Source: a virus. From it: DNA of 64,000 nt. The stretch lies in the IMG/VR virus record IMGVR_UViG_3300017917_004222, positions 62,001 to 126,000 of that record. One strand, 5' to 3'. A program made the position numbers and the translations under genes. This document shows, one piece after another, positions 1,381-5,900 of this stretch. Each line of letters opens with the position of its first letter. Within the stretch, counting starts at the first letter, position 1. Below the pieces are notes generated by a model. The model had not been told where the DNA came from, ran no database searches, and saw nothing but the letters and a program-made list of their open reading frames with translations.

Positions 1381-2397
1381 ATGAGTAACCTATTCCGCAA
1401 AGCTGCTATCTTCACAGACATTCATTTCGGGCTCAAGTCAAACAGTGTGGTTCACAACGAGGACTGTTTGGCTTTTGTTCAATGGGCCACTGCCACTGCC
1501 CGGGCACAGGGGTGTGAAACCTGTCTGTTCCTGGGCGATTGGCACAACAACCGCAGTAGCCTGAACATTGTGACCCTGAACTACAGCCTAAGGGCTCTGG
1601 AGCACTTGAATGCCAACTTTGATCGAGTGTATTTTATACCTGGCAACCACGATCTTTATTATCGCGATCGGCGTGACATACAGAGCGTTGAGTGGGCTAG
1701 ACATCTCCCCAACGTGGAAATTTGTAATGATTGGGTCACTAGCGGCAACGTCACTATCGCTCCTTGGCTGGTGGGCGATGATCACAAGCGTTTGACCCGG
1801 ATGTCTGGACAATACTTGTTCGGGCACTTTGAACTGCCAGGTTACCTCATGAACGCCATGGTGGAAATGCCCGATCATGGCGAGGTCAAGAAAGAAGACT
1901 TGTCGGGCTTTGGTCATGTGTTTACCGGACACTTCCACAAGCGTCAGACCAAGCGCAACATCACCTACATTGGCAATGCATTCCCGCACAACTATGCCGA
2001 CGCTGGCGATGACGAACGCGGCCTGACCATCCTGGAATGGGGCAAAGATCCTGTGTACATGGCCTGGCCTGAACAGCCCACTTACCGTGTGCATGGCCTG
2101 GCCAACTTGATCGACAATGCTGCCACTCTGCTGCGACCCAAGATGCATGTGCGAGTGAACCTGGACATTGAGATCTCGTATGAAGAGGCCAACTTCATCA
2201 AAGAAACGTTTGTTCAACAATACAACCTGCGTGAAATGAGCTTGATCCCCAACAAAACACAGGGCGTGGGTGAAGACCTTGCACCCGGCGATGTCAAGTT
2301 CGAAAGCGTGGATCAGATTGTGACCGATCAGATCACCAACATCGAAAGCGAATTCTACGACAACCGACTGTTGTTGCAAATCTACCAGAACCTATGA
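1381..2397 (+). CDS. 47: Recombination endonuclease subunit gp47 (Mre11/SbcD-like)
   Basis: This is the metallophosphoesterase nuclease that works with gp46 to resect DNA ends during recombination-dependent replication. The five-motif calcineurin-type active site is visible: DIH (13-15), GDWHN (52-56), GNHD (88-91), GHFE (148-151) and GHFH (183-186). The length (338 aa) equals the usual family length. I chose the ATG at 1381; a GTG sits one codon upstream. The stop codon TGA overlaps an ATG (ATGA at 2394-2397) that looks like the original start of gene 46, now a remnant because an HNH endonuclease gene follows. Confidence 0.95.
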   Translation: MSNLFRKAAIFTDIHFGLKSNSVVHNEDCLAFVQWATATARAQGCETCLFLGDWHNNRSSLNIVTLNYSLRALEHLNANFDRVYFIPGNHDLYYRDRRDIQSVEWARHLPNVEICNDWVTSGNVTIAPWLVGDDHKRLTRMSGQYLFGHFELPGYLMNAMVEMPDHGEVKKEDLSGFGHVFTGHFHKRQTKRNITYIGNAFPHNYADAGDDERGLTILEWGKDPVYMAWPEQPTYRVHGLANLIDNAATLLRPKMHVRVNLDIEISYEEANFIKETFVQQYNLREMSLIPNKTQGVGEDLAPGDVKFESVDQIVTDQITNIESEFYDNRLLLQIYQNL

Positions 2398-2438
2398 TTC
2401 AATTTCAAACTCTCACAGTTTCTTCATTGGCTTGGTAA
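2394..2438 (+). pseudogene. Remnant of the original gene 46 start (15 codons)
   Basis: A 14-residue ORF, MIQFQTLTVSSLAW, starts at the ATGA overlap with the gp47 stop. Its first nine residues match the first nine of intact gp46 (MIEFKTLTV) at seven positions, after which it is unrelated and stops. It appears to be the displaced 5' end of gene 46, cut off by insertion of the downstream HNH gene. At the DNA level the two starts differ in nearly every third codon position. Confidence 0.75.
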
Positions 2439-2441
2439 ATA
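2434..2441 (+). promoter_or_regulatory. Late promoter box (GGTAAATA)
   Basis: GGTAAATA lies 29 nt before the HNH endonuclease ATG at 2471, whose leader has a GGAG site. The box overlaps the stop codon of the gp46 remnant, so the insert seems to bring its own late promoter. Confidence 0.6.
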
Positions 2442-2470
2442 CAGTAGCATTACCAACGGAGTAAGTAACT

Positions 2471-3334
2471 ATGACCAGAGAAATTGTTGAGAAGTATATC
2501 AAGACCAAACGATTCACAGATAAAGTTAACCGGCCGCTGCGGGAAGAAGAATTGTTGGCGCTTGACGAAGTAGTCAAGTACTATGGAATATCAGTGTTCA
2601 CTCGAAACAAAAGTCCACTAGAATCTAGGATAATCAATGATCGAATCCCCCTTATGATCAAACACAATGTGGTGACCATTGTTGAAAATTTAGAAAAGTC
2701 AAAACATGTTCGGAGAAACTCCTTAGAACACTATGAATTGATTTATGGGGACTTTGCTAAAGAGATTTATCTTGCGCGCACAAAAAAGTCATTGCAATGT
2801 GAAGATAACTTTGTTGCTCGACACGGCGAACAAAAAGGAAGGGAACTATGGAAAGAGTTCAGCGCCAAAAAATCCAAAACATCGGCGTTTACTAACTCAA
2901 GAGACTGGTACGTTAAGCAATTTGGAGAAGAAGTAGGAAACAAAAAATGGGATGAGGTGGTCCTCAAGCGCCATCGCAAAAGGTGGACTATAGAAGGGTT
3001 GATCGAAACACATGGTAAGAGCCTAGGTGAGCAGATTTACAAAAACATGCTACAGACCAGACAGAGTTATAAAGGTTATGCTAGGAGAGTTCATGCACTC
3101 AGTCATCAAGTGTACGAAGACAACATCGACATCATAAATCCTAACCGTTATCCAAGAACATTATGCGGTGTTGACGGCGGCTGGCAACTGGATCATATTA
3201 AACCCATCAAAGAATGTTACATTCAAGGTATGTCAGTTGAGGATGCATCCAAGTTGGAAAATTTAAGGATGTTGCCATGGAAAGAAAATTTAGCGAGAAA
3301 CAAGAAAGCAAGGAAACAGAATGATCGAGTTTAA
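2471..3334 (+). CDS. HNH homing endonuclease inserted between genes 47 and 46
   Basis: The C-terminal 50 residues carry an HNH nuclease motif: LDHIKP (H near residue 242), then ENLRMLPWKENLARNKK with the second Asn and the third-motif Asn. The N-terminal 230 residues contain several basic, repeated helical segments (such as RHGEQKGRELWKEF and QFGEEVGNKKWDEV) that probably recognise DNA. Base composition is clearly more AT-rich than gp47 and gp46 on either side, a sign of separate origin. The last 14 bases overlap the start of intact gene 46. It has its own late-type promoter and ribosome-binding site. Free-standing HNH genes of this sort normally spread by cutting a neighbouring gene in rival phages; 46 or 47 is the likely target here. 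Confidence 0.85.
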   Translation: MTREIVEKYIKTKRFTDKVNRPLREEELLALDEVVKYYGISVFTRNKSPLESRIINDRIPLMIKHNVVTIVENLEKSKHVRRNSLEHYELIYGDFAKEIYLARTKKSLQCEDNFVARHGEQKGRELWKEFSAKKSKTSAFTNSRDWYVKQFGEEVGNKKWDEVVLKRHRKRWTIEGLIETHGKSLGEQIYKNMLQTRQSYKGYARRVHALSHQVYEDNIDIINPNRYPRTLCGVDGGWQLDHIKPIKECYIQGMSVEDASKLENLRMLPWKENLARNKKARKQNDRV

Positions 3335-5399
3335 AACACTAACTGTCCGAAATTTTATGAGTGTGGGGAACTCAGTCCAAGCCGTGGACTTTGATCGTCG
3401 CGACCTCACACTGGTGCTGGGCGAAAACATGGACCTGGGTGGCGACGGTAGTCGCAATGGCACAGGCAAGACCACCATCATCAATGCCCTGAGCTATGCC
3501 TTGTATGGGCAGGCTCTCAGCAACATCCGCAAGGACAATTTGGTGAACAAGACCAATGGCAAGGGCATGTTGGTCAGTCTCAGCTTTGCCATCAACGGTC
3601 AAAACTATCGAATCGAGCGTGGTCGCAAGCCCAACGTGCTGCGATTCATTGTGAATGACCAAGTGCAAGGGCAAACCGGCGCCGACGAAGCACAAGGCGA
3701 CAGCCGTGAGACTCAAGAAGCCATTGAACGTGTGCTGAACATGAGTCACGACATGTTCAAGCATGTGCTGGCTCTCAACACCTACACCGAACCGTTCTTG
3801 AGTCTCAAGAGCAATGATCAGCGCACCATCATCGAGCAACTGCTGGGCATCACCATGCTGAGTGAAAAGGCCGAACGCATCAAGGAACAGTCGCGAGTGA
3901 CTCGTGATGCTGTGCAGACCGAAGAGCTGAGAATCCGCGCTGTGCAAGAAGCCAACAAGCGCATTGACGAACAGATCAACGGTCTCAAAATGCGTCAAAG
4001 CATGTGGCAGAAAAAACATGATGCTGATTTGAGTCAGTTGGTGACCGAGTTTGATGATCTGCAGCGCATCGACATCGACGCTGAACTGGCTGCACATGCT
4101 GCCTTGGCTGTGTGGTCCGAACAAAAGAAACGCCATGATGCATACATGGCCTTGGTTGCACGTCAACTGGCATGGCAACAGCGTCAGGCACGTGATATAC
4201 AAGCCCTGACGCAACAGCTGACTCAGCTGAGTCACATTGACTTTGATGCTGAACTGGCTGCACATGCTGCTCGGGCACAATGGCAGCGCGTGGTTGCCGA
4301 ACAGGCGGCTCTGCAGCGAAGCATGGCTGCCAACACTGCAGCGGTGGAAAAAGAGCGCCGCATGATCGAAAAGCTCACAGGCGAAATACAGACTCTAGAA
4401 CAACATCGTTGCTATGCTTGTGGCCAGGATTTCCATGATGACCAGCACACTCAGGTGCTGAACAGCAAGCGTGAGCAACTGGCAGAAAGCCAAGCACATC
4501 ACGATGCTGTGTTGGCCCGCATTGCCGAAGATCTCATGCTGGTGACTGATCCCGGAGAAGAGCCACGCACCTTCTACGCAACCGAAGCCGAAGCTGTGCG
4601 GCAAAGTGCAGAGATCGTGAACCTGCAGCAACAGATTGCCACACGTCAAAATGAAACTGATCCCTACTTAGAACAGCTGGCCGAAAGTGAATGCGGTGAC
4701 CCAGGTGCAGCACCGCGCACTCACTATGACTCTGAGCGTGAGGCAGTGGAGCATCGTTCCAGGGTCGAGACCTTGATTCAGCAGATTGAATCCCGAGCCA
4801 CGGAAACTGATCCCTACACTGATCAGATTCAAGACATGCAACAACGTGCCTTGCAGACTGTGGACTACACTGCTCTCAACGAACTCAATCGTTTACAAGA
4901 GCATCAGGAGTTCCTGCTCAAGCTGTTGACCAGCAAGGATTCGTTTGTGCGCAAGAAGATCATTGATCAGAACCTCAGCTATCTCAATCAGCGACTCACA
5001 CACTACCTGGATCGCATTGGACTGCCACACACGGTGAAATTTCAGAACGACCTGTCGGTCATGATTGAAGAGCTGGGACGTGAACTGGACTTTGACAACC
5101 TCAGCAGAGGCGAACGCACTCGCTTGATTCTCAGCATGAGCTGGGCATTCCGTGATGTGTGGGAAAGCCTGTACCACCCCATCAACCTGTTGTTCATTGA
5201 CGAACTCATGGACAACGGCCTTGACACCCAGGGTGTGGAAAACGGTCTGGCCCTGCTCAAGAAGATGAGTCGTGAACGCAACAAGAGCGTTTGGTTGGTG
5301 AGTCACCGTGATGAACTGGCCGGGCGTGTGGAGAATATTCTCAAAGTGGTCAAGGAGCGTGGCTTTACCAGCTACTCAACTGACGTGGAAACGCCATGA
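3321..5399 (+). CDS. 46: Recombination endonuclease subunit gp46 (Rad50/SbcC-like ATPase)
   Basis: The ATPase partner of gp47. Walker A is GSRNGTGKTT (43-52), the zinc hook is CYAC (C364, C367), the ABC signature is LSRGERTR (about 594-601) and Walker B is LLFIDELMD (about 623-631). Between them run two long coiled-coil arms. The protein has 692 residues against 560 in T4; part of the excess is internal repetition: the DAELAAHAA motif recurs 56 codons apart (DNA 4080 and 4248) and the DPGxxPRT motif recurs 50 codons apart (4548 and 4698), the second pair lying after the hook. The start overlaps the end of the HNH gene, so it is probably translated by coupling. Confidence 0.95.
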   Translation: MIEFKTLTVRNFMSVGNSVQAVDFDRRDLTLVLGENMDLGGDGSRNGTGKTTIINALSYALYGQALSNIRKDNLVNKTNGKGMLVSLSFAINGQNYRIERGRKPNVLRFIVNDQVQGQTGADEAQGDSRETQEAIERVLNMSHDMFKHVLALNTYTEPFLSLKSNDQRTIIEQLLGITMLSEKAERIKEQSRVTRDAVQTEELRIRAVQEANKRIDEQINGLKMRQSMWQKKHDADLSQLVTEFDDLQRIDIDAELAAHAALAVWSEQKKRHDAYMALVARQLAWQQRQARDIQALTQQLTQLSHIDFDAELAAHAARAQWQRVVAEQAALQRSMAANTAAVEKERRMIEKLTGEIQTLEQHRCYACGQDFHDDQHTQVLNSKREQLAESQAHHDAVLARIAEDLMLVTDPGEEPRTFYATEAEAVRQSAEIVNLQQQIATRQNETDPYLEQLAESECGDPGAAPRTHYDSEREAVEHRSRVETLIQQIESRATETDPYTDQIQDMQQRALQTVDYTALNELNRLQEHQEFLLKLLTSKDSFVRKKIIDQNLSYLNQRLTHYLDRIGLPHTVKFQNDLSVMIEELGRELDFDNLSRGERTRLILSMSWAFRDVWESLYHPINLLFIDELMDNGLDTQGVENGLALLKKMSRERNKSVWLVSHRDELAGRVENILKVVKERGFTSYSTDVETP

Positions 5400-5456: not shown

Positions 5457-5900
5457 ATGACATGGCTATACCAAGGATCACCAGTTGAAACATTACCGGA
5501 AGAGTGTGCAGGATTTGTGTACCTTATTCAAAACACTCTAACCGGTCGCAAGTACATAGGCAAAAAACTAGCAAAATTTTCTCGAACCAGGCAGCAGACA
5601 GTAAAACTCAAGAACGGCAGCAAAAAGAAAAAGAAAATTCGCACCAAGGTGGATTCGGATTGGCGTGACTACTACGGTAGCAGTCCCGAGCTCACCCGAG
5701 ACATAGAACAGTTAGGCAAAGAGCATTTCACACGAGAGATCCTGTACTATTGCGGCAGCAAATCTGAATGCAGTTATGTTGAAGCAAGAGAGCAGTTCAC
5801 TCGCCGAGTACTAGAGTCCGATGAGTACTACAACGGTCACATTCAAGTGAGAGTGCATGGGTCGCACATTAAGGGCAAGATGATTAATGAAGCGCAATGA
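5457..5900 (+). CDS. GIY-YIG nuclease (SegE-like)
   Basis: A small (147 aa) GIY-YIG protein. The two halves of the motif are GFVYLI (19-24) and KYIGKK (32-37); between this and the C terminus lie a Lys-rich tract (GSKKKKK, 54-60), WRDYYGSS (69-76) and an acidic helix with Glu109/Glu112 (VEAREQF) that would supply the metal-binding Glu. The pattern with DEYYNG and a final basic tail resembles the T4 SegE-type family. Substrate unknown; it could be a homing enzyme or a resident phage nuclease. The start lies just after a stable hairpin that may block translation on read-through transcripts. Confidence 0.75.
   Translation: MTWLYQGSPVETLPEECAGFVYLIQNTLTGRKYIGKKLAKFSRTRQQTVKLKNGSKKKKKIRTKVDSDWRDYYGSSPELTRDIEQLGKEHFTREILYYCGSKSECSYVEAREQFTRRVLESDEYYNGHIQVRVHGSHIKGKMINEAQ

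What the first reader, a model, noticed from the sequence alone, without database searches (positions are those of the whole stretch)
2394..3350. HNH insertion left a remnant of the gp46 start, and the functional start is synonymously recoded
Directly overlapping the gp47 stop is MIQFQTLTV, nearly the same as the gp46 start MIEFKTLTV at 3321. Between them lies the HNH gene. The two nine-codon starts differ in almost every third position (ATT/ATC, CTC/CTA, ACA/ACT, GTT/GTC), so they are not a recent copy. Most simply, the HNH gene came in together with a gp46 start from another phage, or the functional copy was recoded so that the endonuclease no longer cuts it.
Basis: partly seen in the sequence, partly recalled or inferred. 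Interest (0 to 1): 0.75.

Follow-up and report, generated by a model that had tools for sequence, protein, structure and literature searches.

The report
Phage endonuclease carrying a spare gene start
A selfish DNA-cutting gene in a T4-like phage seems to jump into the start of an essential recombination gene and to bring a replacement start with it, altered at the likely cut point, leaving the victim's old start behind as a scar; the same arrangement recurs across dozens of related phages.

Summary
A truncated gp46 start (R, MIQFQTLTV, 2394-2420) overlaps the gp47 stop, an HNH-type gene follows (2471-3334), and the working gp46 start (F, MIEFKTLTV, 3321) overlaps the HNH stop. It is not a one-off: 39 non-redundant IMG/VR loci have an HNH of this family abutting gp46, and 17 carry a significant R copy (0.4 expected). 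In empty relatives gp46 starts exactly where R lies. One near-isogenic trio shows the direction: R of the HNH+ phage L099 equals the intact start of HNH- L344 (27/27), while its F differs and matches L282, which has the F-type start but no HNH. R breaks off after gp46 codon 9-10, next to a TAAATA late-promoter box. F avoids GT[T/A]AA[A/G] at those codons (2/19 versus 160/260; tree-independent pairs, median p 0.016). Several HNH- relatives keep only HNH-tail scars.

Best reading: a homing element cuts gp46 at codons 9-11, leaves the resident start as R, and supplies its own start with an altered cut site. The closest precedent is fungal mitochondrial HEGs that carry a spare gene 3' end; this mirrors it at a 5' end. 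No cleavage was tested. In the window itself, 'foreign F' is supported and 'recoded F' only by analogy.

The parts
1381..2397 (+). gp47 (SbcD-like subunit); its stop overlaps the ATG of R
   Evidence: phrog_100 E 3.6e-57, Pfam Metallophos
2394..2420 (+). R: truncated former gp46 start, codons 1-9 (MIQFQTLTV); the frame runs on to a TAA at 2438 (MIQFQTLTVSSLAW*)
   Evidence: intact HNH-less starts match it 25/27 (L079/L439, L440, L441)
2434..2442 (+). GGTAAATAC, late-promoter-like box (T4 type TATAAATA) 29 nt before the HNH ATG; left end of the inserted element
   Evidence: box between R and HNH in nearly all relatives; TATAAATA 5 in the window against 0.36 expected, ATAAATAC 4 against 0.6
2432..2456 (+). 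possible leader hairpin TTGGTAA...TTACCAA before the HNH ribosome-binding site
   Evidence: sequence; folding not better than shuffles (z -0.4); weak
2471..3334 (+). HNH-type endonuclease gene (287 aa); C-terminal nuclease domain about residues 195-287
   Evidence: phrog_5104 (unknown function)
3310..3314 (+). AAGGA, ribosome-binding site of gp46 lying inside the HNH coding end
   Evidence: sequence; the HNH tail is retained in loss scars
3321..3350 (+). F: working gp46 start, codons 1-10 (MIEFKTLTVR), altered cut-site codons GTC CGA
3351..3410 (+). gp46 codons 11-30: tract with no close match among relatives, possible right-hand co-conversion tract
   Evidence: best match 0.78, lower than all 57 HNH- controls; next 60 nt 0.90
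3321..5399 (+). gp46 (SbcC-like subunit)
   Evidence: phrog_77 E 3.4e-105

Best explanation
It is a free-standing HNH homing element that targets the start of gene 46 and carries a spare start for it. The endonuclease cuts an uninterrupted gp46 start at about codons 9-11 (inferred). Repair from an HNH+ phage pastes in the unit [late promoter - HNH gene - substitute gp46 codons 1 to about 10] at the break. The resident's first 9-10 codons stay in place upstream, fused to the promoter, and become the dead remnant R (shown in L099 against L344). The substitute start F, whose ribosome-binding site lies inside the HNH 3' end, joins the downstream gp46 body and keeps the essential gene working (shown by anatomy). 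Because F rebuilds the target, its codons 9-10 are altered (family-level statistic; protection from cutting inferred). When the HNH decays, its last codons and F are kept because they start gp46 (shown by scars).
For: Empty relatives: gp46 ATG overlaps the gp47 stop exactly where R lies (202 HNH- loci with no insert). R recurs in 17 of 39 non-redundant HNH loci at p<=0.01, including T4-like lineages with quite different gp46 starts (L407/L410, L421). R follows an SGNH gene instead of gp47 in L032 and L108, so the target is the gp46 start. Near-isogenic trio: R of L099 equals intact L344 27/27, F differs and matches L282 26/27, right-hand divergence for about 210 nt then near identity. R breaks at codon 9-10 in most HTH-type elements, and F loses GT[TA]AA[AG] exactly there: 2/19 against 160/260, 12 independent pairs, median p 0.016, with codons 11, 13 and 15 not significant. 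F differs synonymously from the nearest natural starts more than matched controls in codons 2-9 (0.64 against 0.45+-0.06) but not downstream. HNH presence changes at least 15 times on the gp47 tree; HNH distances follow gp47 poorly (r 0.48 against 0.97 for gp46/gp47). Loss scars: L078, L116, L248, L269, L310, L312, L317. Own late promoter.
Against: No cleavage or homing was tested. The protein has no named family, no PDB sequence hit and no significant fold match. The codon 9-10 effect was first seen in the data, several positions were tried, and import of a foreign start could produce part of it. L101 and L096 have nearly identical R and F around the break; L113 keeps GTTAAA in F. Window-type HNHs other than the window carry only partial or no R (L113, L395, L415). 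Phages here are mosaic, so tracts of divergence in L099/L344 may have other causes. The window's F is close to the natural start of HNH-less L007 (23/27), so its donor was a near relative or cannot be told. The AU test does not reject one clade for the HNHs of window, L009 and L032 (p 0.075).
Confidence: 0.75

Rival explanations
1. Plain duplication: the HNH gene was inserted in the same lineage with a long duplication of the first codons, and R and F drifted apart afterwards; no foreign start and no recoding.
For: In L101 and L096 R and F share nearly identical DNA up to the break; R and F of one locus often share lineage-specific residues.
Against: In L099, R equals the empty relative and F does not. 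In most loci R is closer to some natural start than F is. Drift would hit the dead copy R, but in several loci F is the one that departs from natural starts. HNH cutters leave overhangs of a few nt, not about 27 bp (general knowledge).
Confidence: 0.12
2. The HNH gene is ordinary cargo at a recombination hotspot: the 47/46 junction takes in many genes by homologous or illegitimate exchange, and the endonuclease plays no part in its own insertion.
For: 98 of 300 HNH- junctions hold other insertions (SGNH-like, P-loop-like, radical-SAM-like and other genes) of 0.04-2.8 kb.
Against: Those insertions hardly ever leave an R copy (clear only in L049) and directly abut gp46; the R copy, the break at codon 9-10 and the altered codons go with the HNH.
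Confidence: 0.1
3. R is kept for a job: as a half target site beside the late promoter it works as an operator for the endonuclease (as with I-TevI), or as a short leader ORF coupling HNH translation to gp47.
For: R always lies directly beside the TAAATA box. I-TevI represses its own late promoter through a homing-site-like operator (PMC2988022). R often keeps its ATG overlapping the upstream stop.
Against: R is decayed or absent in several loci with intact HNH (L089 with a stop inside, L110, L111, L114, L395), so it is not required. Not exclusive of the best explanation.
Confidence: 0.1

Closest known systems
Fungal mitochondrial mobile ORFs with a duplicated gene end (Allomyces macrogynus atp6, Paquin et al. 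1994; Glomus atp6, atp9, cox2, nad3, PMC3630166)
   Same: A homing endonuclease gene inserts into a protein gene and brings a diverged substitute for the displaced end; the displaced native end remains and matches the endonuclease-free relative.
   Different: There the 3' end of the gene is replaced, in mitochondria, by LAGLIDADG or GIY-YIG elements; here it is the 5' end, in phages, by an HNH-type element whose own 3' end supplies the ribosome-binding site.
Free-standing homing endonucleases of T4-like phages (Seg, Mob families; PMC2988022)
   Same: Phage-borne, intergenic, own late promoter in some, essential signals of the next gene embedded in the endonuclease gene, co-conversion of flanks.
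   Different: Known ones lie beside an intact target; none described there leaves a truncated resident start or carries a substitute start.
phrog_5104 proteins between gp18 and gp19 of T4-like isolates (Sinorhizobium phiM12, Acinetobacter AB-Navy1, Escherichia vB_EcoM_005)
   Same: Same C-terminal nuclease-like domain (32-52% identity).
   Different: Different site, and no duplicated start of gp19.

Membership tests
Free-standing HNH homing endonuclease | HNH (beta-beta-alpha metal) nuclease motif | tested here: inconclusive
   Invariant GGWQLDH, N, N spacing and predicted strand-strand-helix order, but no Pfam/NCBIfam/PDB/Foldseek hit.
Free-standing HNH homing endonuclease | Present or absent at one conserved site in otherwise syntenic relatives | tested here: met
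Free-standing HNH homing endonuclease | Moves between lineages independently of the flanking genes | tested here: met
   Distance correlation 0.48 against 0.97; at least 15 changes of presence on the gp47 tree; AU test of one grouping p 0.075.
Free-standing HNH homing endonuclease | Cuts the endonuclease-free allele at or near the insertion site | not testable with these tools
   Needs purified protein.
HEG with substitute gene end (fungal mORF type) | Gene end present twice, on either side of the endonuclease gene | tested here: met
   17 of 39 loci at p<=0.01.
HEG with substitute gene end (fungal mORF type) | Displaced copy matches the endonuclease-free relative, functional copy is foreign | tested here: met
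   L099/L344/L282; for the window only indirectly.
HEG with substitute gene end (fungal mORF type) | Replaced end is the 3' end of the gene | tested here: not met
   Here the 5' end is replaced; so it works like these elements but is not one of them.
T4-type regulated HEG | Late promoter directly upstream | tested here: met
   TAAATA box in nearly all; box enriched in the window.
T4-type regulated HEG | RNA hairpin that hides the ribosome-binding site | tested here: inconclusive
   Plausible in L087, L089, L103, L108, L109; not significant in the window.
Group I intron or intein | Insert removed by splicing | tested here: not met
   R is out of frame with stops, and F has its own start and ribosome-binding site.

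The most novel reading that the evidence does not exclude
A widespread lineage of phage homing elements specialised on the start codons of gene 46, one of the genes for the recombination nuclease. It makes every insertion harmless by carrying a replacement start with a cut-proof codon 9-10, and changes its DNA-binding half while keeping both site and nuclease half.
Probability: 0.55. Interest if true: 0.75.

Novelty: new variant of a known kind. Interest (0 to 1): 0.66.

Why it matters
It shows how a selfish nuclease gene without an intron or intein can interrupt an essential gene: it carries the piece it destroys. That gives phages the counterpart of the fungal mitochondrial elements, at the opposite gene end, and offers a natural series (empty site, insertion, decay with scar) in which cut site, immunity codon and loss can be read directly and tested. 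It also warns annotators that a short start-like ORF after gp47 is a fossil, and that the target gene is itself a recombination gene that may be used in homing.

Tried and rejected
Direct relatives of the window's HNH by single-protein scan: none found; solved by profile queries. Duplicated gp19 starts beside the phiM12, AB-Navy1 and vB_EcoM_005 homologues: none. Intron or intein: rejected, since no splicing is needed. Global recoding of F: rejected as a general claim, since the excess is confined to the first codons and above all codons 9-10. A whole-gene foreign gp46 in the window: not supported, since the ends are as similar to relatives as usual. Leader hairpin in the window: not significant. 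Foldseek and PDB sequence searches: uninformative. Literature searches found no phage element described as carrying a substitute gene start; the library holds open papers only.

Full report
WHAT IS THERE. At the gp47/gp46 junction of this T4-like phage (gp55-like sigma factor, gp47, gp46) the sequence runs: gp47 stop overlapping ATG 2394; nine codons of a gp46-like start (R, MIQFQTLTV); five more codons and a stop; GGTAAATAC; a ribosome-binding site; a 287-codon HNH-type gene (2471-3334); and the working gp46 start (F, MIEFKTLTV, 3321), which overlaps the HNH stop. Five of the six codons that encode the same residue in R and F differ synonymously.

EMPTY SITES. A scan with gp47 gave 80 relatives, and three more scans brought the total to 340 junctions. 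In 202 of the 300 HNH- junctions gp46 follows gp47 with no insert, typically with ATG overlapping the gp47 stop. That is the place and register of R, so R is the in-situ old start. Intact HNH-less starts match the window's R at 25 of 27 nt and continue straight into NFMSVGN (L079/L439, L440, L441). The other 98 carry other insertions of many kinds, so the junction is a general insertion hotspot.

A FAMILY OF ELEMENTS. Profile scans with the HNH C-terminal domain gave 39 non-redundant loci with the HNH gene abutting gp46. In 17 the peptide just upstream of the HNH resembles that locus's own gp46 start better than 99% of permuted peptides (0.4 expected). More are recognisable by position (L009, L032, L107, L420). 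R is found in lineages with quite different gp46 starts (L421: LHFEKLRWE against LHFEKLRWK). In L032 and L108 R follows an SGNH gene rather than gp47, so the target is the gp46 start. In most elements R breaks after codon 9-10 (TV[N/K/T/I/M]) and runs at once into GGTAAATAC or a variant. TATAAATA, the T4-type late box, is enriched in the window (5 against 0.36 expected), so the element seems to bring its own late promoter. In the HTH-type elements the HNH coding end (for example LMRQYDN*) contains the GAGG ribosome-binding site of gp46.

DIRECTION OF TRANSFER. The best evidence is a near-isogenic trio (gp47 98-99% identical). L344 is empty: ATGTTTAAGATCAAAGATTTAACTGTAAAGAAC. L099 has the HNH; its R is identical to L344 up to the break, and its F (ATGACTTTCAAGATCAAAGATTTAACCGTGAAGAAT) is not. 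L282 has no HNH but has the F-type start. Right of the insertion, L099 and L344 differ at 10, 10, 9 and 5 sites per 60 nt, then at 1, 1, 0 and 1, like a co-conversion tract; mosaicism elsewhere in these genes tempers that. In the window itself, gp46 codons 11-30 have no close match (0.78, below all 57 controls), and similarity returns to 0.90 in the next 60 nt.

IS F RECODED? Against the nearest HNH- start, F has more synonymous differences than matched natural pairs in codons 2-9 (0.64 against 0.45+-0.06), slightly more in the next eight, and no excess beyond. The signal is strongest at codons 9-10: GT[TA]AA[AG] in 160 of 260 HNH- and 2 of 19 HNH+ starts. Over 12 independent pairs on the gp47 tree it is lost in 7.8 and gained in 0.4, median p 0.016; codons 11, 13 and 15 show nothing significant. 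Solutions vary (GTG AAG, GTC CGA, GTT CGN, GTC ATG, TTG AAA, TGT AAA, CTN), including changes of an otherwise nearly invariant valine. This is what immunity of a rebuilt target would look like, at the place where R breaks. Caveats: the site was found in the data and 11 site tests were run; import of starts explains part of it; L101 and L113 do not fit.

MOBILITY AND LOSS. HNH presence needs at least 15 changes on the gp47 tree. HNH distances correlate 0.48 with gp47, whereas gp46 and gp47 correlate 0.97. The window's HNH has a different N-terminal half from those of L009 and L032, though its gp47 is their close kin; the AU test for separating them is not significant (p 0.075). HNH-less loci with HNH-tail scars directly before gp46 (L078, L116, L248, L269, L310, L312, L317) show decay in which the tail with the gp46 ribosome-binding site is kept. 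Some of these still hold R and F, which explains most cases of 'both starts without HNH'; L049 is the exception.

MECHANISM. Shown: R is the resident start, F is foreign in the clearest case, the insertion point is fixed, F is fused to the HNH end, the element carries a late box, and losses leave tails. Inferred: the HNH protein cuts at codons 9-11, repair pastes the unit, and altered codons 9-10 protect F. Gene 46/47 exonuclease itself is listed as possibly used in T4 homing (PMC2988022), so the element sits in a gene it may need.

KNOWN KINDS. The logic is that of fungal mitochondrial mobile ORFs that carry a substitute C-terminus (PMC3630166; Allomyces atp6 cited there): displaced copy like the relatives, functional copy diverged. 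Here the other end of the gene is replaced, in a phage, by an HNH-type element. T4 Seg and Mob endonucleases share late promoters, embedded signals and co-conversion (PMC2988022), but no substitute start is described there. I therefore rate it a new variant of a known kind. The nuclease identity rests on motif and predicted topology only.

Noticed in passing
window 5457-5900: A SegE-type GIY-YIG endonuclease gene (PF19835, E 3.2e-33) lies on the other side of gp46, so gp46 is flanked by two putative mobile endonucleases.
   Followed up: no
gp47/gp46 junction of L002-L081 and others: The junction is a cargo hotspot: about a third of HNH- loci carry SGNH-like, P-loop-like ('YPSGGFG'), radical-SAM-like or other genes there, usually with the stop overlapping the gp46 ATG.
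   Followed up: partly
L049, about 1227 nt after the gp47 stop: An R-like gp46 start (MIHIENLTV) precedes a roughly 500-aa non-HNH gene; no HNH tail is seen, so its origin is unexplained.
   Followed up: partly
L089, L108, L087, L109 leaders: Inverted repeats span the late box, ribosome-binding site or start codon of the HNH gene (L089 AATATTAAG-GAGA-CTTAATATT), resembling the T4 endonuclease leader hairpins that block translation of early transcripts.
   Followed up: partly
window 2432-2456 and L395: The TTGGTAA/TTACCAA arms of the window leader appear as TGCTAA/TTAGCA in L395, a possible compensatory change; not tested on an alignment.
   Followed up: no
window 7734, 18979, 26543: TATAAATA or ATAAATAC boxes about 25 nt before structural-gene ORFs, consistent with a T4-type late promoter read by the gp55-like sigma factor at 478-1368.
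   Followed up: partly
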